DNA from: a virus
Reading direction: 5' to 3' (one strand)
Virus record (IMG/VR): IMGVR_UViG_3300044962_000013
Location: 1-39,849 of that record
Length of the DNA: 39,849 nucleotides
Position numbers and translations under genes: made by a program. Below are positions 1,123-27,257 of this stretch, piece by piece (position 1 is the stretch's first letter; every line of letters begins with the position of its first letter). The notes under the pieces are model-generated. The model had not been told where the DNA came from, made no database searches, and saw only the letters and a program-made list of their open reading frames with translations.

Positions 1123-2932
1123 CTGGGCGTTGCGCGCCGCGGGCTACCGCGCCCGGCCGCCCGCGCTCGCATCGAGCCGCCCGCCGCTCGGCGCGCTGGC
1201 CAACCCGTCGTTCAACGGCCTGCCCCACCAGCCCATGTGGCCCGCGTACGAGGGCCCTCAGGCCATCCGCGTGGGCAACCGCAACGTCTACGCCGCGCGC
1301 TGCATCGAGCGCATCGCCAACGACATCAGTGGCCTGCCGTTCTACGCGGGCAACATGAAGAGCAAGACGCCCCGCCCGACCACGGCGATGCAGCAGCTCC
1401 TCGGCCCGGCACCAGGTTCGCCAAACCCGCAGTGGAGCGCGGCGAAGCTGTGGAACTACACGGTCCGGCAGTGGCTCATCCTCGGCAAGTTCGCGTGGCT
1501 GCACGAGTATGACGCCAACGGCCGGATCGTGGCGCTGTGGCCGCTGATGGCGCAGTACGTGGTGCCGGTGGTGGCGCCCATCGGCGCGGGCGGCTACTTC
1601 GAAGAGTTCCGCTACGGCACGGCGGGCAGCCCCGGCTACCGCGTGTTCAAGCCCAGCGACATCACGTACGTGTGGAATCCCAGCGACGAGGACGTGCGCC
1701 TGCCACGGGCACCGCTCGCGCTCGCGAACTGGGGCATCAAGATCAGCCAGCTGCTCGATGCGTACGACGACGCGTTTCTCTCGAACGGCGGCGTGCCGGC
1801 CTACCTGGTGGTGACGCCCAGCTTCGCGGACAGCAAGTCACGCCGCTCGTTCCGGGACCAGTTCCGTAGCCGCTTCGGCGGGCCCAAGAACGTGAACAAG
1901 GCGCTGTTCGCCGAGACCGATGTCGAGCCCGGCGAGGTGGGCACGGTGCCGGCGGCATCGCAGAGCGTGAGCGTGCAGGTCATCGGCACGTCGCAGAAGG
2001 ACGCCCAGCTGGACGTCCTGCGCACCAACCGGATATCCGACATGTGCGTCGCGTTCGGCGTGCCGCTGTCCGTGCTCGGCGACAGTTCCGCGGCGAAGTT
2101 CACGAACATGGGCACGGACCGCACCAACTACTGGCGCGACACGGTGGGCGGCCACATCCGCGGGCTGGCCGATGGCGTGAACACCTCCTTCGGCAAGCTG
2201 GTGGACGGGCCGCTGGACATCGGGTGGTTCGACACGTCCAACGTGCCGGAGATGCGGCGTCCGCCCGTGTTCGACGCGCACGAGGGTCTGGCCGCCGTGG
2301 CCGCCGGCACCATCACGCTGAACGAGTACCGCGCCGATCGCGGGCTCGACAAGCTCACGGACCCGGATGCCGACGTGGCCAAGCCCCGCCCGACCGCGGT
2401 GCTCCGCCTGTCCGACGTGCTCAGCAACGGCGCCGACCCTTCGGCCGCGCTCGCCGCTGCCGATGCCGCTGCTGCCGGGACGGACAATGCGCCGGCTCCC
2501 GCCACGACGCCGGCCAAGACGGCACCCCCGCCCGCGCCGACGCCGAAGCGGGCCGATGCCGTGCGCACCGACCTGCTCGGCGTAGTGCGTGGTCAGCTGG
2601 CCGTGGAGCTGGCAGACCAGGCGGCCGAACTGCGCGCCCGCATCGAGGGCAAGCGCGGAGGCCGCAAGCGCGCCCACGCCGGGCTCGACCTCGGCTTGGC
2701 GTACGAGGCAGACCACTGGCGTGAGCGCATGGCCCGCAACCTCGGGCCCGCGCTGCGTGCGGCGGGTGTGCGCGAGCCGGACGGCTGGTCCGAAGACATC
2801 ACCTCGGCGGTGTTCGAGTCGATCAGCGGCCTGACGCCGGACGACCCGTGGCAGGCCAGCTTCGGCGTGGACGAAGTGCTCGGCCGCCTGCGTCCGCTCG
2901 CACCGGCCACGCTGCTGCTGGACGGGGCGTGA
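1109..2932 (+). CDS. Portal protein (HK97-like)
   Basis: Forms the dodecameric ring at the capsid vertex through which DNA passes. The 607-residue product has the typical start AIRVGNRNVYAARCIERIAND, then W-rich and P-rich core segments and the clip/stem region around LSVLGDSSAAKFTNMGTDRT. After about residue 440 it carries an Ala/Pro-rich linker and a helical C-terminal domain. GTG at 1109 was preferred over GTG at 1073 because GGAGG lies 9 bases upstream of 1109 and the first 12 residues from 1073 are Arg-rich and unlike portal N-termini. It overlaps the next gene by GTGA. Confidence 0.92.
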   Translation: MALTDWALRAAGYRARPPALASSRPPLGALANPSFNGLPHQPMWPAYEGPQAIRVGNRNVYAARCIERIANDISGLPFYAGNMKSKTPRPTTAMQQLLGPAPGSPNPQWSAAKLWNYTVRQWLILGKFAWLHEYDANGRIVALWPLMAQYVVPVVAPIGAGGYFEEFRYGTAGSPGYRVFKPSDITYVWNPSDEDVRLPRAPLALANWGIKISQLLDAYDDAFLSNGGVPAYLVVTPSFADSKSRRSFRDQFRSRFGGPKNVNKALFAETDVEPGEVGTVPAASQSVSVQVIGTSQKDAQLDVLRTNRISDMCVAFGVPLSVLGDSSAAKFTNMGTDRTNYWRDTVGGHIRGLADGVNTSFGKLVDGPLDIGWFDTSNVPEMRRPPVFDAHEGLAAVAAGTITLNEYRADRGLDKLTDPDADVAKPRPTAVLRLSDVLSNGADPSAALAAADAAAAGTDNAPAPATTPAKTAPPPAPTPKRADAVRTDLLGVVRGQLAVELADQAAELRARIEGKRGGRKRAHAGLDLGLAYEADHWRERMARNLGPALRAAGVREPDGWSEDITSAVFESISGLTPDDPWQASFGVDEVLGRLRPLAPATLLLDGA

Positions 2933-4851
2933 CCGCGCCCAAGCCGCCGCCCCCGGTGGGCGCCAACGCGGCCGACGTGACGATCGAGGTGACGGCGGCG
3001 TTGCTCGCGGCCGGTGCGGCGGCCACCGTCTCGGCGGCGCTGGCCGGTATCACCGGCGTGACGTCCGCGGTCATGAAGAAGATCTTCACCGAGCGCAAGT
3101 TCGGGGCGTTCATCTCCGGCGCGCTCAAGGCGGTACCCGCGCCTGCTCCCGAGGGGGACGCCGCCGAGGGGGTCAGCGAGAGCGTCCAGCGCCTCGCGGG
3201 GGAAGAACAAGCGCGGGCACGGGCAGCGTACCTCGTGACGGCCACGATCCGGCTCGCCAAGGCGTACGCCACGGGCGACCTGGACACCGTCACCAAGGCC
3301 AAGGCGCGCGAGGACAAGCTGCTCACCGCGCACAAGGACGCCGTCGCGCACCGCGACGAACAGCTCAAGCAGCTGGCAGACGCCGTGGCCGGCACCGAGC
3401 CCGACGCCGATGGCCGCGTGCTGATGGGCTGGTACGGCGACGACAACCCGAACCAGTGCGCGCGCTGCGCGGCGGCCGACGGCCGGAACTTCGATGCGCT
3501 CGCGCCGCCGCCGATCGGCTGGCCGGGTTGGGTGCACCCGCACTGCTTCTGCGAAGCGGGTCCGCCGCACAAGTCTGCCAAACTGGTAGACGACATTGAC
3601 CCGAAGCTGCGTACTCAGCTGGACGGACGGAGCACCATGAAGGTTGAGACCAGGGCCGCCAAGATCATCGAGATCCGCGGGCCCGGCACCGAGCAGCCGA
3701 CGGCCAAGCCAGGGTTCACCGCCAAGCTCGTGAGCTACGGCGTGCCCGACTCCTACCGCACGAGCTGGACCAAGGGCGTGTTCACTCGCGCGCTCGAGGC
3801 CCGCGCCGGCGACGGCCACGCGATCCCCGTGGTGTGGAACCACGACTGGGCGGACCCCGTCGGACAGGTGGTGTCCTACCGCGACGAGTCGGACGGCTTC
3901 TACGGCGATGTCGAGTTCGACGACTTCGATGCCGTGCCGCGCGCTCGGCAGGCCCACGCTCAGCTCCGCTCGGGCACGATGGGGCAGTTCAGCTTCGCGT
4001 TCGGGCGCGGCGAGGAGGAGGAAGACGGCGAGCACCGCGGCGTCATGAAGCAGACTAGCGTGGCCGCCGTGCAGGAGTTCTCCATCGTGCTCAACGGCGC
4101 GGTCCCGGGCACCGGCGTGCAGTCGGTCCGCTCGGCACAGATCGACCTGGACGCCGTGACCGACGTGTTCGCCCGGCACGCCAAGGGCGAGCTGGACACC
4201 GTGCACGCGCTGGCCGAGATCCGCAGTGCCGAGACGCGCAGCGCGGCCACGTTCGAGATCCGCGCCCTGGACGGCACGCAGACCGACGGCGTCGACCCGC
4301 TCGGCGTGCTGGCTGCCGTGGATGCGGCGATGTCCGGGGTGGCCGATCAGCTGGCGAAGGAAGACGTGGAGGCCGCGCGGCGCTACTTCAGCCAGGCCGC
4401 GAGCCGGCTCTCCGAGCTTCAGTACCTCCTCGGCATGGTCCCCACCGTGGACAGCGGCCCGTTCGGCGACTGGCGCGGCGCGGGCAAGCCGTCCGACCCG
4501 GACCCGGCGCTGAACACCGAGCTGCGCGAAGACGAGGCCGTGCTGCGCATGAGTGACGAGGCCGAGATCGCGGACGCCGGGCGCTACGCCGGGTTCGTCT
4601 CGCAGCGCTCGAGCGTTCGGCACCTTCGCACAGGCACGGCGAAGAAGCCGTACGGCGACGTGAAGTACGCCGACACCGGCTACCAGAAGGACAAGAAGAA
4701 GCGTTACCCGCTCGACACCAAAGAGCACGTCCAGGCCGCGCTGAGCTACATCGGCAAGGCGTCCAACGCCGGGCAGTACAGCTCGGGCGATCTGGCCAAG
4801 GTCAAGGCCGCGATCAACGCGGCGGCGAAGAAGTTCGGCATCGGGCAGTGA
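2929..4851 (+). CDS. MuF-like head protein fused to prohead protease and a C-terminal scaffold-like domain
   Basis: A 640-residue head assembly protein. Residues 1-235 resemble a MuF-type minor head protein, including the CARC motif at 177-180 and HPHCFC at 203-208. Residues about 237-390 resemble the HK97 prohead protease (U35), with candidate catalytic His305 in WNHDWADP and Ser355 in GQFSFAFG. The end (KYADTGYQKD to AAAKKFGIGQ) looks like the DUF6582-type tail found on related proteins. The start GTG overlaps the portal stop (GTGA). An internal in-frame ATG at 3637, after GGACGGAG, could yield a separate 404-residue protease. Cleavage of capsid and scaffold at the domain joins is inferred. 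Confidence 0.85.
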   Translation: MTAPKPPPPVGANAADVTIEVTAALLAAGAAATVSAALAGITGVTSAVMKKIFTERKFGAFISGALKAVPAPAPEGDAAEGVSESVQRLAGEEQARARAAYLVTATIRLAKAYATGDLDTVTKAKAREDKLLTAHKDAVAHRDEQLKQLADAVAGTEPDADGRVLMGWYGDDNPNQCARCAAADGRNFDALAPPPIGWPGWVHPHCFCEAGPPHKSAKLVDDIDPKLRTQLDGRSTMKVETRAAKIIEIRGPGTEQPTAKPGFTAKLVSYGVPDSYRTSWTKGVFTRALEARAGDGHAIPVVWNHDWADPVGQVVSYRDESDGFYGDVEFDDFDAVPRARQAHAQLRSGTMGQFSFAFGRGEEEEDGEHRGVMKQTSVAAVQEFSIVLNGAVPGTGVQSVRSAQIDLDAVTDVFARHAKGELDTVHALAEIRSAETRSAATFEIRALDGTQTDGVDPLGVLAAVDAAMSGVADQLAKEDVEAARRYFSQAASRLSELQYLLGMVPTVDSGPFGDWRGAGKPSDPDPALNTELREDEAVLRMSDEAEIADAGRYAGFVSQRSSVRHLRTGTAKKPYGDVKYADTGYQKDKKKRYPLDTKEHVQAALSYIGKASNAGQYSSGDLAKVKAAINAAAKKFGIGQ

Positions 4852-5798
4852 GCGCGGTCGTCTACGCGCCGTACGCGGACGCGTCGGCGTTCTACCGGCT
4901 GCTCGAACCCGCGCGCGTGCTGGGCGTGCCTGTGGTCGAGCACCTGCCTCAGGTGGGTGACGCCGAGACGGTGATCCTCAACCGGCCGTTCGACGGCGGC
5001 ATCGCCGAGCAGATCCGGTTGTGGGTGGCCGAGGGGCGCCGCGTGGTGGTGGACCAGGATGACTGTTTCGACACGGTCTCGCCCAACCACGCTGTGTACG
5101 GCCGGTACACCACCGAGCACATGCACCTCGCCTGCAAGTACGCCACCGTGGTCACGACCAGCACGCCCGCGCTCGCGCACCGGTACGGCTACGGCCACGG
5201 CGTCGTGCTGCGCAACCGCGTGCCGGCGTGGCGCCTGTCCGTGGAGCGCGATGCCCGCGGGCCCGAGGCGCCGCTGTGGGTGGGCTGGTACGGCTCGCTG
5301 TGGTCGCACCCGGACGACCCCGCTCAGGTGGGCGGCGGGCTCGGCGCGCCGATGCGTGACACCGGCGCCGAGTTCGCCATGTTCGGGCCGGAGAAGGACG
5401 TGCCGATCGTGGCCGCCCACCTCGGCCACGACGGCGTGACGCACCCGTTCGGCTACTACTCGATGGATGGCGTCATGCGCGCCATCGCCGAGTGGGACCT
5501 TGGCATCGTGCCGTTGGAGCTGAGCGCGTTCAACGAGGCGAAGAGCGGGCTCAAGGGCCTGGAGCTGGCCGCCGCCGGCGTGGCCGTCATCGCCTCGCCC
5601 ACGTCCGAGTACAAGCGCATGGCCGAGTTCGGCGCGTGCGTGACGGCCCGGACGCCGCGCGATTGGGAGAATTGGGCTCGTCTGCTGCTCCGTGATGCAG
5701 AGGCACGGCGCGCGCAGGCCGAGCGCGGGAAGCGGTGGGCGGCCACGCAGACGTACGAGCTGCACGCGGCCGACTGGCGCTCAGTGTGGTTCGCCTGA
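4848..5798 (+). CDS. GT4-like glycosyltransferase in the head operon
   Basis: A 316-residue protein resembling retaining GT-B glycosyltransferases. The N-terminal half has the nucleotide-fold pattern of such enzymes (VVVDQDDCFD, then TSTPALAHRYG). The C-terminal half has the donor-binding segment WDLGIVPLELSAFNEAKSGLK followed by LELAAAGVAVIAS. GTG overlaps the previous stop by GTGA, and the major capsid gene follows after 99 bases. Actinophages are known to glycosylate virion proteins with enzymes encoded beside structural genes, so capsid or tail glycosylation is the likeliest role. The donor sugar cannot be read from sequence. No membrane segment is visible. Confidence 0.82.
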   Translation: MSAVVYAPYADASAFYRLLEPARVLGVPVVEHLPQVGDAETVILNRPFDGGIAEQIRLWVAEGRRVVVDQDDCFDTVSPNHAVYGRYTTEHMHLACKYATVVTTSTPALAHRYGYGHGVVLRNRVPAWRLSVERDARGPEAPLWVGWYGSLWSHPDDPAQVGGGLGAPMRDTGAEFAMFGPEKDVPIVAAHLGHDGVTHPFGYYSMDGVMRAIAEWDLGIVPLELSAFNEAKSGLKGLELAAAGVAVIASPTSEYKRMAEFGACVTARTPRDWENWARLLLRDAEARRAQAERGKRWAATQTYELHAADWRSVWFA

Positions 5799-5803
5799 GA
5801 AAC

Positions 5804-5815
5804 GGCGTTATGATC
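5804..5815 (+). promoter_or_regulatory. Candidate promoter -10 (GCGTTATGAT) before the capsid gene
   Basis: The segment GGCGTTATGATC has a TANNNT -10 (TATGAT, 5809-5814) in the 99-base gap before the capsid gene. Nearly the same words occur at 33819 (GGCGTTATGCTC) and, on the other strand, at 22576-22586 (GCGTTATAAAA). No convincing -35 is seen. A separate capsid promoter would suit a highly expressed gene. Confidence 0.4.
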
Positions 5816-5897
5816 CGCTGTAGCCACTCGTGACGGGCTGTTGTGACTGCCGAGGGCGGATGCTGTACCAGTGACATCCTGACTACTAGGAGTAGCA

Positions 5898-7124
5898 ATG
5901 CCCCAGACCACAGCACAGTGGCGCGCGGAAGCGAGCGCCGAGGAGCTGGCCACCCGAGCCGCAGAGATGCGCTCCGAGTGGGCCACCACGTCCGAGAGCC
6001 TGCGCAACGGCGACTCTGCCGCGTTCGAGACCGCCCGCTCGGCATTCCTCGCCGAGGTCGAGGAGATCGACATCAACATGTCGCTCCGCGGCATCGAGGC
6101 CATGCCGGTCGCGTTGCGCGGCCAGACCCGCGGCGGCGACAACGGCACCATCGGCTCCGGCGACGCGCGCGAGCTGCGTTCGCCCGGCCAGATCGTCATC
6201 GAAGACGAGGCGTTCAAGGCGTGGGCCGCCGGTGGCGCCCGTGGCGAGTCGCCGGGTGTCGAGCTGCGCGCCCTCGTAGCCGAGAACGACTCGAACGGCT
6301 CCTCGGGCCTGCTCCCTGTCGGCCAGCCGTTCCTGGTCAACCAGCAGCGCCGGCGCCTGTTCATCCGCGACCTGATCGGCGTGCAGCAGACCGGCCTCTC
6401 GGCCATCCCGTACGTCCGGGAGCTCAACGCCGTGGCCAACCAGATGGGCGCGAACGTCGTCTCCGAGGGTGGCACCAAGCCTGAGGCCACGATCCAGCTG
6501 ACCCCGGACCTGGCGCCCGTGCAGGTTGTCGCCGTCACGCTGCCCGTCACCACGCAGATCGTGGAAGACGGTCTCACGCTGATGGGCTACATCAACGGCC
6601 GCCTGACCTACATGCTCAAGATCCGCGAGGAAGACCAGATCCTCCGCGGCTCTGGCACCAGCCCGAACCTCAAGGGCATCCTCTCGTACGCGGGAATCCA
6701 GACGCAGACGGGCACCACCACGGACCCAGTCATCGCGATCGGGAACAGCATCTCCCTGATCGAACTGGTGGACGGCTACGCCGACGGCGTGGCCATGAAC
6801 CCGGCCGACTACTGGGCCATGGTCACCAAGCGCAACAGCGCGGGCAACTTCGATGTCGGTGTCAACGGCGAGTGGAGCGCGAGCCCCACGCAGTACATCT
6901 GGGGTCTGCCGGCCGTTCGGGCCAACAGCCTGAACAGCAAGCAGCTCCTGGTGGGCAACTTCGGCATGGGTGCGACGCTGTTCGACCGCTCGCAGTCCGG
7001 CGTCCGGGTGTTCGAGCAGCACGGCACCTTCGCGGCGGAGAACAAGGTTCTGCTCCGGGCGGAGGAGCGCGTGGCGCTCGCCGTCAACCGGCCCGACTTC
7101 TTCGTCAAGACCACCCTCACCTGA
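5898..7124 (+). CDS. Major capsid protein (HK97 fold)
   Basis: The 408-residue shell protein. The first about 100 residues are charged and helical (scaffold or delta-domain type). The Phage_capsid domain follows, with SGLLPVGQPFLVN, an E-loop and spine-helix region, and the P-domain segments VVAVTLPVTTQIVEDG and LRAEERVALAVNRPDFFV at the end. ATG 5898 follows TAGGAG. The upstream fused protease could remove the N-terminal region. It is followed directly by a small gene overlapping by ATGA and then by a methyltransferase, with a glycosyltransferase before it. Confidence 0.95.
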   Translation: MPQTTAQWRAEASAEELATRAAEMRSEWATTSESLRNGDSAAFETARSAFLAEVEEIDINMSLRGIEAMPVALRGQTRGGDNGTIGSGDARELRSPGQIVIEDEAFKAWAAGGARGESPGVELRALVAENDSNGSSGLLPVGQPFLVNQQRRRLFIRDLIGVQQTGLSAIPYVRELNAVANQMGANVVSEGGTKPEATIQLTPDLAPVQVVAVTLPVTTQIVEDGLTLMGYINGRLTYMLKIREEDQILRGSGTSPNLKGILSYAGIQTQTGTTTDPVIAIGNSISLIELVDGYADGVAMNPADYWAMVTKRNSAGNFDVGVNGEWSASPTQYIWGLPAVRANSLNSKQLLVGNFGMGATLFDRSQSGVRVFEQHGTFAAENKVLLRAEERVALAVNRPDFFVKTTLT

Positions 7125-21294: not shown

Positions 21295-21342
21295 CCCCCT
21301 GACCTGTCCTGGGCTTCTTTGGTCGGGGCCCCCGGACAGCAC

Positions 21343-21379
21343 AGAGCCCCCACCGCAACCCCGAAGCGGTGGGGGCTCT
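21343..21379. terminator. Bidirectional terminator hairpin between convergent blocks
   Basis: A perfect 14-bp stem (AGAGCCCCCACCGC, 21343-21356, with 21366-21379) and a 9-base loop lie between the last rightward and last leftward genes. No clear U run follows on either strand, but the stem is the strongest in the window. A second inverted pair, CTGTCC/GGACAG, lies just before it at 21304-21339. Confidence 0.8.
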
Positions 21380-21387
21380 CGTGTGCG

Positions 21388-21654
21388 TCAGGGCAGGGTG
21401 CCCTCGGCGCGGTTGGCCATTTCGTGGATGAGGGAAATCATGATCAACGACTTCCCTTGCACCTCGTCGATCAGGTTGTGCAGCTCGTCGATCATGGCGC
21501 CGACCTCCATCGAGTCCGAGGAGATCCCGGCGGCGTGCTGCACCATGGCCAGCACTTCATCCAGGACGATGTCCGACCCGGACACCTGCTCCGGCACCTC
21601 GGCAGCCTTCGCGGCGGCGGCGCGCAGCACGGCGATCTCATCAGCGACGCTCAT
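21388..21654 (-). CDS. Small helical protein, ESX-like paralogue 1
   Basis: An 88-residue, almost wholly helical product, last gene of the leftward block. It starts MSVADEIAVLRAAAAKA and ends with a helical LIMISLIHEMANRAEG. GGAGG lies 7 bases before its ATG. It shares length, start and layout with the three upstream genes, though its sequence is the most divergent. Two helices around a central acidic turn recall WXG100/ESX-type substrates, but no WXG motif is present. Confidence 0.6.
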   Translation of the reverse strand: MSVADEIAVLRAAAAKAAEVPEQVSGSDIVLDEVLAMVQHAAGISSDSMEVGAMIDELHNLIDEVQGKSLIMISLIHEMANRAEGTLP

Positions 21655-21923
21655 GGGGTACCTCCTCGGAGAAGTCGGTTGGCCACGGCCTCGAGAATCT
21701 GCGCCATGACGTCGATCAAGTTGTCGATGTGGCCCATGGACGTCCCGATCTGGTTGACGCACATGGCGAACTCGTCGCCGATCGGGTCGTGGCCGAGGAT
21801 GCCGCGCACCACCATCAGGTGATCGGCGGCCACGGCGGTGACGTTCTGCGTGGCGGCGTGGCCGTCGCGGGAGAGCGCGGCGGCGATCTCCTTCAGCGCG
21901 GCGGCGTCATCGGTGACGCTCAT
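21651..21923 (-). CDS. Small helical protein, ESX-like paralogue 2
   Basis: A 90-residue helical product overlapping the next gene by ATGA. It aligns well with paralogue 3: LSRDGHAATQNV against LLDEGHAAVNAV, LGHDPIGDEF against LGNSPAATDF, and the endings AVANRLLRGG against TAARLLQDG. The predicted fold is a helical hairpin or short bundle. No signal peptide or membrane helix is seen. An ESX-like or small adaptor role is suggested only by overall form. Confidence 0.65.
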   Translation of the reverse strand: MSVTDDAAALKEIAAALSRDGHAATQNVTAVAADHLMVVRGILGHDPIGDEFAMCVNQIGTSMGHIDNLIDVMAQILEAVANRLLRGGTP

Positions 21924-22219
21924 CGGGGGCCGTCCTGGAGCAGCCGCGCCGCCGTCTCGGCCAGCACCTCGGCCAGGGCGTTGATCCGGTGCTCCAGTTC
22001 GGTGACCACCGAGCCCGCATCGGCGACGCCGCGCGCGAAGTCGGTGGCCGCCGGGGAGTTGCCGAGGGTGTCGCGCAGGCTGTCCCGCTTGGTCTCCATG
22101 ATCAGGCTCACCGCGTTGACGGCGGCGTGCCCCTCATCGAGCAGTTCGGCGGCCAGCGCGTTCACGCGGGCGGCGTGCTCGGCGGCACTGACGGGCACCT
22201 CCCGCCACCGGGCGGTCAT
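21920..22219 (-). CDS. Small helical protein, ESX-like paralogue 3
   Basis: A 99-residue helical product, clearly related to the following gene (see that entry). It begins MTARWREVPVSAAEHAARVNA, adding about ten residues before the shared region. It overlaps neighbours on both sides by ATGA, so the four genes are translated as one unit. Confidence 0.65.
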   Translation of the reverse strand: MTARWREVPVSAAEHAARVNALAAELLDEGHAAVNAVSLIMETKRDSLRDTLGNSPAATDFARGVADAGSVVTELEHRINALAEVLAETAARLLQDGPR

Positions 22220-22554
22220 GACATGAACGACCGGGCGACATCACGCAACTGCTCGGCCAGCTGGTTCAGCTCGCCGCCGAGGACGGCGGAGTCCGATTCC
22301 AGCTGGGTGACGCGGGCAGCGATGCTCTCGGCGTCGGTGCTCAACCGCTGCGCGTGGCCGGTCAGCTCGGGCGTGGCGCCGTGCGACTCGCCGAGCACGT
22401 CGACGATCATGGCCGGGATGCTGGCCATCGCGTGGAACACCCCCTGCGCCGCGGGCTCCATCTCGGCCGCGTGGCCGTGCGACGCGTCCGCCAGTCCGAC
22501 GGGCAGGGCGTCCGCGATGCCGAACAACCGTTCGGCGTTCTCCTGGATCGACAT
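22216..22554 (-). CDS. Small helical protein, ESX-like paralogue 4
   Basis: A 112-residue helical product from ATG 22554 (ATG 22563 is an alternative but leaves only 2 bases after the AAAGGA site). It starts MSIQENAERLFGIADAL, contains GHAAEMEP like the HAA word of paralogues 2 and 3, and ends in a long heptad-like helix (VTQLESDSAVLGGELNQL). It heads the four-gene set and has its own candidate promoter upstream. Confidence 0.62.
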   Translation of the reverse strand: MSIQENAERLFGIADALPVGLADASHGHAAEMEPAAQGVFHAMASIPAMIVDVLGESHGATPELTGHAQRLSTDAESIAARVTQLESDSAVLGGELNQLAEQLRDVARSFMS

Positions 22555-22575: not shown

Positions 22576-22586
22576 TTTTATAACGC
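22576..22586 (-). promoter_or_regulatory. Candidate promoter for the ESX-like cluster
   Basis: On the minus strand the gap holds GCGTTATAAAA, matching the GCGTTAT element before the capsid gene and before the polymerase gene. A similar word (CCGTTACAAAT) lies about 25 bases upstream, so the pair forms an imperfect direct repeat with period about 25. A -35 is not clear. Confidence 0.4.
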
Positions 22587-22590
22587 TGTT

Positions 22591-22737
22591 TCAGGGTTCG
22601 ATTTGTAACGGTGTTTCGGGCACCCGCTCGGCCGTGGCCTGCACGGGAGCCGGTCCGCCGAGGATCGCGGCGATCTCGCGCACGGCCTCGGTCAGCTTCA
22701 CCAGCCCGCTCACGCGGGGCTCCAGTTCCTTGCTCAC
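22591..22737 (-). CDS. Short helical protein, function unknown
   Basis: A 48-residue product starting at GTG 22737 with AGGAG five bases before. It reads MSKELEPRVSGLVKLTEAV, a single amphipathic helix, then a Pro/Glu tail. The frame has no competitor in this gap and keeps the spacing of neighbouring genes. No family is recognised. Confidence 0.5.
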   Translation of the reverse strand: MSKELEPRVSGLVKLTEAVREIAAILGGPAPVQATAERVPETPLQIEP

Positions 22738-23209: not shown

Positions 23210-23436
23210 CAGACGTCAATCGGCGGACCCGCGATCACCTGAGTGAGACGCCCCACGCCACGGCGGGGGCGCGGCGCCGCCATGACCTGCGACCAGACGA
23301 CGCCCGGCGCGCCGGCGTGGCCGCACGTGCCCCACTCGCACTCGCGCTGGCTGGCCAGGTGGTACCGCCGCATCAGCTCGTCGTGGCTGATGGCACCCGT
23401 CTGGAACAGGATCCGCAAGTCGTCCGGGAGCGTCAC
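23206..23436 (-). CDS. Small protein with a zinc-like CxnC motif
   Basis: A 76-residue product. The frame is open further upstream, but GTG 23436 overlaps the previous stop (GTGA) and the sequence before it lies in the glycosyltransferase. It reads MTLPDDLRILFQTGAISHDE, with CEWGTCGH in the middle and a basic end (PRPRRGVGRLTQ). No family is recognised. Confidence 0.55.
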   Translation of the reverse strand: MTLPDDLRILFQTGAISHDELMRRYHLASQRECEWGTCGHAGAPGVVWSQVMAAPRPRRGVGRLTQVIAGPPIDVW

Positions 23437-24248
23437 GACGCCTGCCCCGTGTAGTCCTGCGCGGTGCCGAACAGGTGGGGGGCCGGGTGGTCGTTGTCCC
23501 GCGAGCCGTCGGGCAGCGGCATGGCGGCGCACTTCGCCCGCCACAGCCGGATGTTCGGGTTCGCCTCGGTGCCGTCGTGGTGATCGACCGGGTGATCGAA
23601 CTGGAGCAGCGGGTACGGCGACGTGCGCGCCTCGATGACCTGACGCGTCGCGGGGTGCGTCCTCAGCCGGCTCCAGAAGTCGACGTCTTCGTAGGCCCAG
23701 CCCTCGAATCGCTCATCGAAGCCGCGCACGGCCATGAACGCCTCACGGGTGAAGGCGATCGGCCCGACGGTGGGGGTCTGGTGCTCGTGCATGTCGACCT
23801 CATGCCACGTCGTCGCGTCCGCCGGGATCGTGCCACCGTGGTTGAACAGCAGCGTCCACGGCCGGGTCTCCAGCTGCTCGGCCGCCCAGTCCACCACGCG
23901 CCAGTCCGGCAGGGCATCGGCGCCGATGCACACGAAGCTGTCCACCTCGGGCGGGGCCAGGCGCACGGCCCGGTTGATCGCGCGGGCCACGCTGAAGGGG
24001 ACGGGCGTGTTCGTCACGCGCGTCTCGCCGAAGCTCTGGCCGTAGACGCTGCGCGTGGTGCCGAACAGGGGGTCGCTGGCGATGATCAGGCGGCGGTGCG
24101 GGAGCGCTTCCTTGCGGGTCAATCCGGCGTGGAGGTCTTGCAGTGCGGTGTCCGTCCAGAGCGCCGACGTGCGGGCCCAGATGGCGGCGCGCGCTCGGCC
24201 GGTCTCGGTGTCGTCCGCCCCGAGGGGGATGATCAATGCTGTGGTCAC
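23433..24248 (-). CDS. GT2-like glycosyltransferase in the early block
   Basis: A 271-residue protein resembling GT-A glycosyltransferases. It has the opening VTTALIIPLG, CIGADALPDWRVVDWA where a DxD-type metal motif is expected, and GPIAFTREAFMAVRGFDERF followed by GWAYEDVDFWSRL, the galactosyltransferase-like C-terminal signature whose acidic residues act in catalysis. GTG 24248 overlaps the previous stop; earlier in-frame residues belong to the upstream gene's DNA. Being early rather than late, it may act on host surface sugars, phage DNA or a nucleotide-sugar product rather than on virions. The acceptor is unknown. Confidence 0.75.
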   Translation of the reverse strand: MTTALIIPLGADDTETGRARAAIWARTSALWTDTALQDLHAGLTRKEALPHRRLIIASDPLFGTTRSVYGQSFGETRVTNTPVPFSVARAINRAVRLAPPEVDSFVCIGADALPDWRVVDWAAEQLETRPWTLLFNHGGTIPADATTWHEVDMHEHQTPTVGPIAFTREAFMAVRGFDERFEGWAYEDVDFWSRLRTHPATRQVIEARTSPYPLLQFDHPVDHHDGTEANPNIRLWRAKCAAMPLPDGSRDNDHPAPHLFGTAQDYTGQAS

Positions 24249-24418
24249 TGGTCCTTCACTCTCTGTGATGTGAGGTGGTGGTAGCCGCAGGAGTCGCATC
24301 TGTAGCAGCGGAGCGGGGCCTTACGGGCGGCGCGGCTGGTCCGCGCGTCGTGCGCCGACAGGTACTTGATCTTCTGCGGCGTGTGCTCGCAGACCGGCCG
24401 CCGCTCCACGGTGGTCAT
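24245..24418 (-). CDS. Zinc-ribbon protein common in actinophages
   Basis: A 57-residue basic product with CEHTPQKIKYLS and CYRCDSCGYHHLTSQ, giving a CxnC plus CxxC zinc ribbon. The CDSCGYHHLT-type ending is a recurring actinophage and actinobacterial motif. ATG 24418 overlaps the preceding stop (ATGA). Likely a small nucleic-acid- or protein-binding factor. Confidence 0.7.
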   Translation of the reverse strand: MTTVERRPVCEHTPQKIKYLSAHDARTSRAARKAPLRCYRCDSCGYHHLTSQRVKDQ

Positions 24419-24898: not shown

Positions 24899-25336
24899 TC
24901 AGTTGTACGGGTAGAACCCGGTGGCGGAGTAGGTCACGTTCGCGTTGTACTGCGGGCAGAGCATCCCCGTGGCCGAGGACATGATCGTGTGGCTTTCGAG
25001 CGGGGAGAAGCCGCTGGACACGCCCGCCAGCAGCACGGCGTGCGGGTCGGCGCCGCGGGCCCACGCGGCACAGGTGGAGTCGGCCAGCCCGAGCAGCGTC
25101 GCGTCATCCACGCTGAACAGGCGCGGCACCACCGAGCGCAGCATCTCCGGGACGGCGGCGCGGCTCACGCCCGAGGGGGCGGTACCGGCCATCGGCCCGG
25201 CCCGGCCCGGCGCCGTGACGCTCGACCAGGTGGTGGGCGGGGCGGCCACGGGGGCCGAGGCGCTGGAGCAGCCGGTGAGCACGACGGCGAGAACCAGCGC
25301 GGCCCCGGCCCACCAGGCGTAATAACCTCTGAACAT
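24899..25336 (-). CDS. Lipoprotein with DUF732-like domain
   Basis: A 145-residue secreted lipoprotein. A signal peptide (AALVLAVVLTGC) ends at a lipobox cysteine, Cys23. A Pro/Ala-rich linker follows, then a domain from about residue 75 (DDATLLGLADSTCAAW, FSPLESHTIMSSATGMLCPQ) with the two cysteines and layout of DUF732, a mycobacterial-type secreted domain. ATG 25336 was preferred over TTG 25342 because AAGGG is at better distance. Phage lipoproteins made early often block superinfection; that role is inferred. Confidence 0.75.
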   Translation of the reverse strand: MFRGYYAWWAGAALVLAVVLTGCSSASAPVAAPPTTWSSVTAPGRAGPMAGTAPSGVSRAAVPEMLRSVVPRLFSVDDATLLGLADSTCAAWARGADPHAVLLAGVSSGFSPLESHTIMSSATGMLCPQYNANVTYSATGFYPYN

Positions 25337-26157: not shown

Positions 26158-26802
26158 CTACCCGGCGTCCGGTAGAGCGGCTAGCGCCTCGGCCGCCCTG
26201 GTCGGGCTGGCGCGCACGAGATCCCGCGTGCGCTGGGGCGGCGGCGCGGTGCCGTTGCGCAGGGCCGAGCGGTACGCCTGGTGCCAGCGCTTGGTGAAGT
26301 AGGCGCCGCCGTACACGCCTTCCCGGCGCCACCGGAGCGCGTCCTCCAAGCAGGCCGTGCGTACCGGGCACTCCGCGCAGATCTCCATCGCCCGGGTCGT
26401 CTCGCGGCTGAGCTGCCCCGTGGTCGCGCCGCCGACCAGCCGGCCGCCGCGCTCCATCGGGTCGAACCAGTCGGCCATCTCCGGCGAGCACGCGGCGGCG
26501 TTCAGCACGTCCACCGGCGGCAGCCCGACGAACAGGTAGCTCATGTCCTTGGGGCCCTCGTGCGTCTCGGCGGCGCACGCTCCGCACGCCCGGACGCCGG
26601 GGCTCTTCGGGTGCAGCCCGGCCTTGCACAGCTCGGGCCCGCGCACCGCCGCCCAGCACGCCCGGCACCGGTGCACGCCTTGGGTGCGGGAGACGGAGTC
26701 TGGGAGCGTGAGGTCATGGCCGAACGGGCAGAGCCCCGAGCGGACGACGGCGATGCCGATCGTGGGCATGTCGACGAGCTTGATCGCGTATCTGGTGGTC
26801 AC
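26158..26802 (-). CDS. WhiB-family regulator with N-terminal zinc knuckles
   Basis: A 214-residue protein. The C-terminal half has the WhiB iron-sulphur pattern Cys105, Cys142, Cys145, Cys151 (AACSPEMADWF, ICAECPVRTAC) followed by GVYGGAYF, the variant of the usual glycine-rich turn, and a basic tail likely to touch DNA. The N-terminal 100 residues hold two zinc-ribbon-like units: CPFGH...CRAC and CKAGLH...CGAC. Most phage WhiB proteins lack such an extension. GTG 26802 overlaps the previous stop. It probably adjusts host sigma-factor activity. Confidence 0.85.
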   Translation of the reverse strand: MTTRYAIKLVDMPTIGIAVVRSGLCPFGHDLTLPDSVSRTQGVHRCRACWAAVRGPELCKAGLHPKSPGVRACGACAAETHEGPKDMSYLFVGLPPVDVLNAAACSPEMADWFDPMERGGRLVGGATTGQLSRETTRAMEICAECPVRTACLEDALRWRREGVYGGAYFTKRWHQAYRSALRNGTAPPPQRTRDLVRASPTRAAEALAALPDAG

Positions 26803-27257
26803 TGGTCTGCCTCCTGGTACCGGCGGCCCAACGGGTCGGGACAGCCGTAGTGCTTGACGAGGGTGTAGAGCGCGTGGCGGCACGCGTCACGGGTGTGCGG
26901 AAGGCCGCGGGTGGGCGCGAGGCCGGCGGCGGCGAGCCGCTTGTTGGTGGCCCAGCGCTTCACCTCGCTGGCCGTGGCGCGGTTCGTGCGAACGCCCAGG
27001 ACCGCCAAGGCGCCGATGATGCTGCGGGCCTTCTCCCCCGCGGTGGCCGAGGAGCTGCGCCCGGCCCGTCGGCTCACCACGAACCGCTCCACGGCCAGCG
27101 ACACGCCCGTCGGGCACAGGGCGTCCACCTGGGCCACCACCACGTCGGCCGCGCCGGTGAGCCCGGCATGCTCGACCAGCCGGTAGCGGCCGTCCTCGAA
27201 CCGCACGAGCGCCACGCCGGTGGTGCCACCGGGGTCGACCCCGAGCACGGCGGTCAC
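26799..27257 (-). CDS. RuvC-like Holliday junction resolvase
   Basis: A 152-residue RNase H-fold nuclease. VLGVDPGGTTG supplies the first catalytic Asp (residue 8), LAVERFV the Glu, and HTRDACRHALY the last Asp, with a helical segment in between. Such phage resolvases clear branched DNA before packaging or recombination. It overlaps its neighbours by GTGA and ATGA, within the replication-linked part of the block. Confidence 0.85.
   Translation of the reverse strand: MTAVLGVDPGGTTGVALVRFEDGRYRLVEHAGLTGAADVVVAQVDALCPTGVSLAVERFVVSRRAGRSSSATAGEKARSIIGALAVLGVRTNRATASEVKRWATNKRLAAAGLAPTRGLPHTRDACRHALYTLVKHYGCPDPLGRRYQEADQ

What the first reader, a model, noticed from the sequence alone, without database searches (positions are those of the whole stretch)
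21388..22554. Four tandem small helical paralogues resembling ESX-type proteins
Four adjacent genes of 88-112 residues overlap by ATGA and share length, helical form and, for two, clear sequence identity (DGHAA, LG..P...DF, final A.RLL..G). Two-helix proteins of about 100 residues are the form of type VII secretion substrates in actinobacteria. A phage-encoded set could interfere with or use the host system. No WXG motif is present, so the link is tentative.
Basis: partly seen in the sequence, partly recalled or inferred. Interest (0 to 1): 0.66.

Follow-up and report, generated by a model that had tools for sequence, protein, structure and literature searches.

The report
Phage array of toxin-partner-like hairpin proteins
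An actinobacterial phage carries four small look-alike helical proteins that turn out to be relatives of the escort proteins bacteria place in front of DNA-damaging toxins, but without any toxin attached, so the phage may be using or jamming its host's toxin machinery.

Summary
In detail: four minus-strand genes (112, 99, 90, 88 aa) overlap by four bases at 21388-22554, keep their order in one sister phage, and evolve under purifying selection. P0002 is a confident helical hairpin; P0001 is one at lower confidence.

ESX membership fails: no WxG, no C-terminal YxxxD/E, no profile match, no profile-profile similarity to WXG100 above reversed controls. The analogy gains support, though. The genes belong to a hairpin family without a Pfam or NCBIfam match, found in 27 of 297 Pseudonocardiaceae genomes. 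There the ~84-aa gene often overlaps a gene whose N-terminus is a second such hairpin fused to a toxin domain, mostly DddA-like DNA deaminase, followed by Imm1. One complete cassette sits at the edge of a prophage, like mycobacterial PEST cassettes.

So the phage carries an orphan, four-copy, toxin-less array of toxin-partner-type hairpins. Homology is well supported for P0001-P0003 and fair for P0004. Function is inferred: the hairpins pair with each other and/or with host toxin hairpins, as partners or decoys. No binding, export or toxin effect was tested, and the type VII route is open.

The parts
22216..22554 (-). P0001, 112-aa long helical hairpin; start MSIQENAERL and turn LGESHGAT match the bacterial family
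   Evidence: start fixed by sister alignment
21920..22219 (-). P0002, 99-aa helical hairpin; turn LGNSPAAT
21651..21923 (-). P0003, 90-aa paralogue of P0002; turn LGHDPIGD
21388..21654 (-). P0004, 88-aa most diverged paralogue
   Evidence: its sister copy P0009
21343..21379 (-). 14-bp GC-rich hairpin shortly after the P0004 stop, between convergent gene blocks; no U-run; the stem keeps pairing in the sister through a change on both sides
   Evidence: z -5.1 for 21330-21395; not listed by the U-run based scan
22577..22592 (-). proximal copy of a 16-nt direct repeat GAAACANCGTTAYAAA just upstream of P0001; operator or promoter candidate
22602..22617 (-). distal copy of the same repeat; overlaps the end of a 48-aa ORF, so coding constraint may explain its conservation
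22591..22737 (-). 48-aa ORF immediately upstream, with a counterpart in the sister, no Pfam match; possible co-transcribed neighbour

Best explanation
A co-oriented, overlapping array of four paralogous small helical-hairpin proteins of a toxin-partner family, carried by a Pseudonocardiaceae-type siphophage without a toxin or immunity gene. SHOWN by sequence: the gene array, its conservation in a sister phage, mutual homology, and homology to a Pseudonocardiaceae family of ~84-aa proteins. That family is often encoded with a four-base overlap in front of toxins (DddA-like DNA deaminase with Imm1; an AHH-like nuclease) whose N-terminus is a second copy of the same hairpin. INFERRED from architecture and from the Lap/Esx partner proteins of type VII toxins: the hairpins pair side by side into helical bundles; in bacteria the small protein pairs with the toxin's N-terminal hairpin to stabilise it and address it for export; in the phage the four pair with each other and/or with host or prophage toxin hairpins. 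INFERRED, most likely purpose: during infection they engage host hairpin-toxin complexes, sequestering or redirecting the toxin (decoy, or partner in trans). The lack of a toxin, and of any integrase seen in the gene list, argues against a lysogen-fitness toxin cassette.
For: Order kept in the sister and dN/dS 0.23-0.52. Hairpin models. Bacterial-family profile vs P0002/P0003: score 37.0, max 17.1 in 100 column shuffles, reversed control 10.7; vs P0001: 39.1, max 18.0, reversed 14.1 (searches agree). Bacterial HMM: P0001 30.7 bits vs at most 11.0 in 5000 shuffles; P0001 was not in the profile that found the family. Among 602 ORFs of the window and the sister locus the top 6 are cassette genes. 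P0004/P0009: combined profile 28.2 vs max 16.7 in 200 shuffles; P0009, not in training, 17.1 bits, E 9e-4 among 2630 ORFs. Second hairpin ORF next to the partner in 10 of 30 bacterial loci and 9 of 20 extended loci. DddA-like in 5 of 7 such ORFs scanned, Imm1 in 3 of 3 downstream genes scanned. Full cassette at the end of prophage record G392.
Against: No toxin or immunity gene found in the window. P0004 alone is not distinguishable from shuffles with the bacterial HMM, nor by bacterial profile vs A3. P0002 and P0007 each have 1 of 5000 shuffles scoring higher. The family was found through a weak hit (E 0.0077 in one genome of 390, where about 4 chance hits are expected). The reverse search with the P0001 profile gave hits in 9 of 297 genomes, of which only one, fourth by E-value, is a family member. 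Two-helix hairpins are common, and ATP-synthase c subunits and designed hairpins tie with ESX proteins in the structural comparison. No export motif is present. The decoy role has no direct evidence. Integrase absence was judged by reading ORFs; only part of the proteome was scanned in Pfam.
Confidence: 0.5

Rival explanations
1. Remnant or donor part of a PEST-like prophage cassette: the array once served (or serves in trans) a polymorphic toxin exported by a host type VII system, and the toxin and immunity genes have been lost.
For: Prophage G392 carries partner, hairpin-DddA toxin and Imm1 at its edge next to a serine recombinase. Incomplete ESX-type sets in mycobacteriophages Dori, Che9c and Sbash are reported (PMC10654092, passages). 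Partner genes without a second hairpin ORF are common: 20 of 30 bacterial loci.
Against: Four copies kept in two phages at dN/dS 0.23-0.52 is not decay. None of the 20 extended bacterial loci examined has more than two hairpin ORFs.
Confidence: 0.2
2. The four hairpins form their own heteromeric helical bundle with a role in infection (structural, regulatory or envelope-related) that has nothing to do with toxins, whatever their ancestry.
For: Four co-conserved copies suggest a self-contained complex. Lone bacterial copies also suggest a toxin-independent role. Generic coiled coils dominate the structural hits of P0001.
Against: Sequence homology to proteins whose genes overlap toxin genes bearing the same hairpin.
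Confidence: 0.25
3. True but divergent WXG100/ESX substrates that lost the motif, exported by the host ESX system.
For: Top Foldseek hits of P0002 are WXG100 proteins (4i0x, 3gvm). TIGR03930 is touched below its cut-off by 4 of 16 bacterial members, best E 0.017. WXG100 genes in 8 of 8 family genomes examined.
Against: Bacterial profile vs WXG100 scores 14.7, reversed controls 17.3 and 15.6. Foldseek E-values are all above 0.1 and unrelated hairpins tie. WxG in 0 of 8 phage and 0 of 16 bacterial proteins. P0001's Pfam WXG100 touch is below cut-off and aligns its second helix to the first half of the profile.
Confidence: 0.05

Closest known systems
PEST cassettes of Mycobacterium prophages (PMC10654092, passages read; PMC9434293, passages)
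   Same: Phage-borne small helical partner genes; partner, toxin, immunity logic as in prophage G392, at the prophage edge; incomplete sets known in a few mycobacteriophages
   Different: The partner is not WXG100; the window has four partners and no toxin or immunity gene; the host family differs
Lap1/Lap2 (DUF3130/DUF3958) targeting factors of LXG toxins (PMC9600955, passages) and EsxB/C/D partners of EsaD (PMC10653861, passages)
   Same: Small WXG100-like hairpins, several per toxin, that bind the toxin's N-terminal helical domain
   Different: No sequence match in the Pfam scan; no FxxxD/YxxxE export arm at the C-terminus; those belong to Bacillota T7SSb and have a toxin beside them
WXG100/ESAT-6 family (PF06013, TIGR03930)
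   Same: About 100-residue antiparallel helical hairpin
   Different: No WxG, no C-terminal YxxxD/E, no significant profile or profile-profile match
DddA-like deaminase toxins with Imm1 (PF14428, PF14430)
   Same: The bacterial relatives are encoded directly before them, and the toxin N-terminus is a related hairpin
   Different: The phage has neither the deaminase nor the immunity gene beside the array

Membership tests
WXG100/ESX | about 100-aa two-helix hairpin | tested here: met
   P0002 pLDDT 90.6; P0001 at pLDDT 75; P0003 and P0004 not modelled alone
WXG100/ESX | WxG motif in the turn | tested here: not met
   present in 0 of 8 phage proteins
WXG100/ESX | C-terminal YxxxD/E | tested here: not met
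   present in 0 of 8 phage proteins at the C-terminus; only FxxxD at residue 11 of P0001 and P0006
WXG100/ESX | match over the Pfam or NCBIfam cut-off | tested here: not met
   P0001 14.0 bits vs 27.3 and 12.8 vs 44.85; the other three none
WXG100/ESX | export by a type VII system | not testable with these tools
   needs an eccC mutant and a secretion assay
Pseudonocardiaceae toxin-partner hairpin family (alignment A8, defined here) | profile homology over the hairpin | tested here: met
   P0001 and P0002/P0003 far above shuffles; P0004 only through the combined profile
Pseudonocardiaceae toxin-partner hairpin family (alignment A8, defined here) | LGx[ST] turn | tested here: inconclusive
   16 of 16 bacterial proteins; 5 of 8 phage proteins strictly (P0003 has LGHD, P0004 AGIS, P0009 SGIT)
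Pseudonocardiaceae toxin-partner hairpin family (alignment A8, defined here) | adjacent hairpin-toxin gene | tested here: not met
   none beside the array; in bacteria itself present in only 10 of 30 loci, so not strictly defining
PEST cassette | WXG100 partner + polymorphic toxin + immunity gene | tested here: not met
   no WxG and no toxin or immunity gene beside the array
Lap1/Lap2 (DUF3130, DUF3958), DUF6244 | Pfam profile match | tested here: not met
   no such row at E up to 10 in the Pfam scan of P0001-P0004; that these models are in the library was not checked

The most novel reading that the evidence does not exclude
The array is a phage counter-measure built from toxin-partner hairpins: four decoys that occupy the N-terminal hairpins of host or prophage DddA-like and nuclease toxins, or their export machinery, during infection. 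It would be a phage-encoded inhibitor or hijacker of a hairpin-addressed polymorphic toxin system.
Probability: 0.2. Interest if true: 0.8.

Novelty: new variant of a known kind. Interest (0 to 1): 0.6.

Why it matters
It links an orphan phage operon to an uncatalogued, apparently Pseudonocardiaceae-centred partner family for DNA-deaminase toxins, and it shows such partners multiplied without a toxin in a phage. If the pairing is confirmed, it gives a small, expressible set of proteins for asking how toxin N-terminal hairpins are recognised without a WXG motif, and whether phages interfere with that recognition. DddA-type deaminases are also base-editing tools, so partners of their natural N-termini are of practical interest.

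Tried and rejected
Rejected: WXG100 membership. Rejected as chance: sub-threshold Pfam, PHROG, NCBIfam and PDB-sequence touches of the phage proteins; the A1-profile hit L098 and the fragment hits L099, L100, L102, L103; eight of nine A2-profile hits, all in long frames.

Led nowhere: phage and plasmid tblastn with P0001-P0004 (P0001, P0003 and P0004 were not run against plasmids) and with the bacterial partner; near-identity search of window 1-25000 against phages; A1 against genome contigs; BFVD structures; promoter scan. Foldseek and VIA cannot separate ESX from other hairpins. Phages sharing the endolysin (L008-L010) show no array in the stretch held. Papers: listings, and passages of PMC3482391. 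No paper holds prophage, DddA and Pseudonocardi together, and none holds phage-encoded, inhibitor, type VII secretion system and decoy. Any claim that the array is unreported rests only on these searches.

Data handling: the bacterial HMM used 16 non-redundant of 23 members that I picked from 33 phmmer hits. The WXG100 alignment had 15 of 18 attempted proteins and includes one wrong-frame row, L174. The genome searches scored only about 12-18 candidates per genome.

Full report
WHAT IS THERE. The window is a virus record of 39,849 bases with a 127-base terminal repeat, so probably a complete circular or circularly permuted genome. It encodes head, tail and lysis genes on the plus strand and a minus-strand block with a helicase-like gene, a cytosine methylase, WhiB and others (names from Pfam where one search covers them, otherwise from reading the sequence). 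The four genes of the finding end the minus-strand block. They lie at 22216-22554, 21920-22219, 21651-21923 and 21388-21654 and overlap by four bases each. A 14-bp hairpin lies just past the last stop codon (21343-21379), between the convergent blocks. Its stem keeps pairing in the sister phage despite a changed base pair. Upstream of the first gene lie two copies of a 16-nt repeat, both fitting GAAACANCGTTAYAAA exactly in each phage; the only other match with up to three mismatches in the window is one at 5799. The distal copy overlaps a small ORF, so only the proximal copy is mostly non-coding.

CONSERVATION. One sister phage, IMGVR_UViG_3300036795_000114, carries all four genes in order at 63, 81, 67 and 53% identity. 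Nei-Gojobori dN/dS is 0.52, 0.23, 0.48 and 0.29, against 0.37 for the endolysin and 0.14 for a holin-like gene. The genes are therefore real and constrained. P0002 and P0003 are clear paralogues. P0001 and P0004 join them at the profile level, above every one of 200 column-shuffled controls.

FOLD. AlphaFold2 gives P0002 as a two-helix hairpin at mean pLDDT 90.6, and P0001 as a longer hairpin at 75.2. Foldseek ranks WXG100 proteins first for P0002, yet no E-value is below 0.1. In the second look, ATP-synthase c subunits and designed hairpins score like the ESX proteins (Z about 9-10). P0001 matches coiled coils of many kinds, with CFP10-ESAT6 and TelA-LXG/LapA3/LapA4 chains among them. Shape alone therefore does not assign a family.

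THE BACTERIAL FAMILY. A profile of P0002, P0003 and their sister copies was searched in 390 genomes of the family of Amycolatopsis anabasis (Pseudonocardiaceae). This family was chosen because the phage endolysin's best bacterial relatives are in Amycolatopsis anabasis and Sciscionella marina (53-54%). It gave only weak hits (7 of 390 genomes at E up to 0.01, close to chance). One of them spans the whole hairpin in an 84-aa gene that begins MSIQEQA, like P0001's MSIQENA. That protein has relatives in 27 of 297 genomes of the family, but its profile (A8) hits only 2 of 394 genomes drawn across the class, both already in the family set. Aligned (A8, 16 proteins), they show an invariant LGx[ST] at the turn, where WXG100 proteins carry WxG (that position is recalled).

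TESTS OF THE LINK. Bacterial profile against P0002/P0003: score 37.0, best of 100 column shuffles 17.1, reversed 10.7. Against P0001: 39.1, 18.0 and 14.1 (searches agree). P0001 was not part of the profile that found the family, so this is an independent check. With the bacterial HMM, P0001 scores 30.7 bits and P0006 23.2, against best shuffles of 11.0 and 13.1 (5000 shuffles made per protein). P0008 (17.1 vs 10.8) and P0003 (11.1 vs 10.9) lead their shuffles. P0007 and P0002 are each beaten by one shuffle. P0004 and P0009 are not distinguished. Among 602 stop-to-stop ORFs of the window and the sister locus, the six best are cassette genes. P0004/P0009 join through the combined profile (28.2 vs 16.7 in 200 shuffles), and P0009 scores 17.1 bits (E 9e-4) among 2630 ORFs without having been in the model. 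Against the reading: the P0001 profile run over 297 genomes gave hits in nine, and only one, fourth by E-value, is a family member.

WHAT THE BACTERIAL RELATIVES ARE LINKED TO. In 10 of 30 loci, and 9 of 20 extended loci, the small gene is next to an ORF with a second, related hairpin, overlapping by four bases in the loci read for this (L134, L135, L136, L142, L152). Seven such ORFs were scanned. Five carry a DddA-like DNA deaminase domain (E 2e-16 to 2e-18), one an AHH nuclease match just below its cut-off, one nothing. All three downstream genes scanned are Imm1. The other loci show no second hairpin ORF. One cassette lies at the end of virus record G392. That record has a terminase, an SU10-type capsid protein, a peptidoglycan-binding protein and a repressor-like gene; in the genome a serine recombinase stands just beyond the immunity gene. 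Three of its tail-region genes are about 29-30% identical to the window's. This is a prophage cassette laid out like the PEST cassettes of mycobacterial prophages (PMC10654092, passages).

MECHANISM. In T7SSb toxins, two or three small hairpin partners bind the toxin's N-terminal helical domain and promote its stability and export (PMC9600955 and PMC10653861, passages). The bacterial family here has the same gene logic, so the same role is the natural inference. It is not shown, and the type VII route is open: there is no export motif and no profile link to WXG100, although WXG100 genes occur in 8 of 8 family genomes examined. The phage keeps four hairpins and no toxin. No integrase was seen among the ORFs read (not every protein was scanned). 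A toxin cassette for lysogens therefore seems unlikely, and I favour pairing with host or prophage toxin hairpins, as decoy or partner in trans. A toxin-independent four-hairpin bundle is the main rival.

COMPARISON AND NOVELTY. They may work like Lap/Esx partners, but they are not members of WXG100, Lap1, Lap2 or DUF6244 by the tests run. I rate them a new variant of a known kind: an orphan, multiplied, phage-borne set of non-WXG toxin-partner hairpins. Phage-encoded incomplete ESX-type sets are already reported, which limits the surprise.

Noticed in passing
L134 (G391) 2493-6011; L157 1-1426 (record G392): A Pseudonocardiaceae prophage carries a complete hairpin partner, hairpin-DddA toxin and Imm1 cassette at its edge next to a serine recombinase.
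   Followed up: partly
L139, L140, L141, L149: Copies of the bacterial partner gene without a second hairpin recur beside the same genes (dxr, rseP, ispG by reading), suggesting a toxin-independent role or domesticated orphans.
   Followed up: no
window 24899-25336 (-): Predicted lipoprotein with a DUF732 match (Pfam E 5.5e-7); a candidate envelope or superinfection-exclusion protein.
   Followed up: partly
window 26158-26883 (-): Phage-encoded WhiB-like regulator behind an extra cysteine-containing stretch (Pfam WhiB E 3e-9).
   Followed up: partly
window 23433-24299 (-) and 4848-5798 (+): One glycosyltransferase (Glyco_transf_7C, E 7e-8) and one further glycosyltransferase-like gene by reading, so the phage may modify virion or host surface sugars.
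   Followed up: partly
window 22577-22617 (-): Two 16-nt direct repeats 25 bases apart upstream of the array, kept in the sister phage; possible operator or unusual promoter.
   Followed up: partly
L012 9736-10020 (-): A 94-aa helical-looking ORF downstream of a prophage-type endolysin in Sciscionella marina; the combined family model found nothing in L012.
   Followed up: partly
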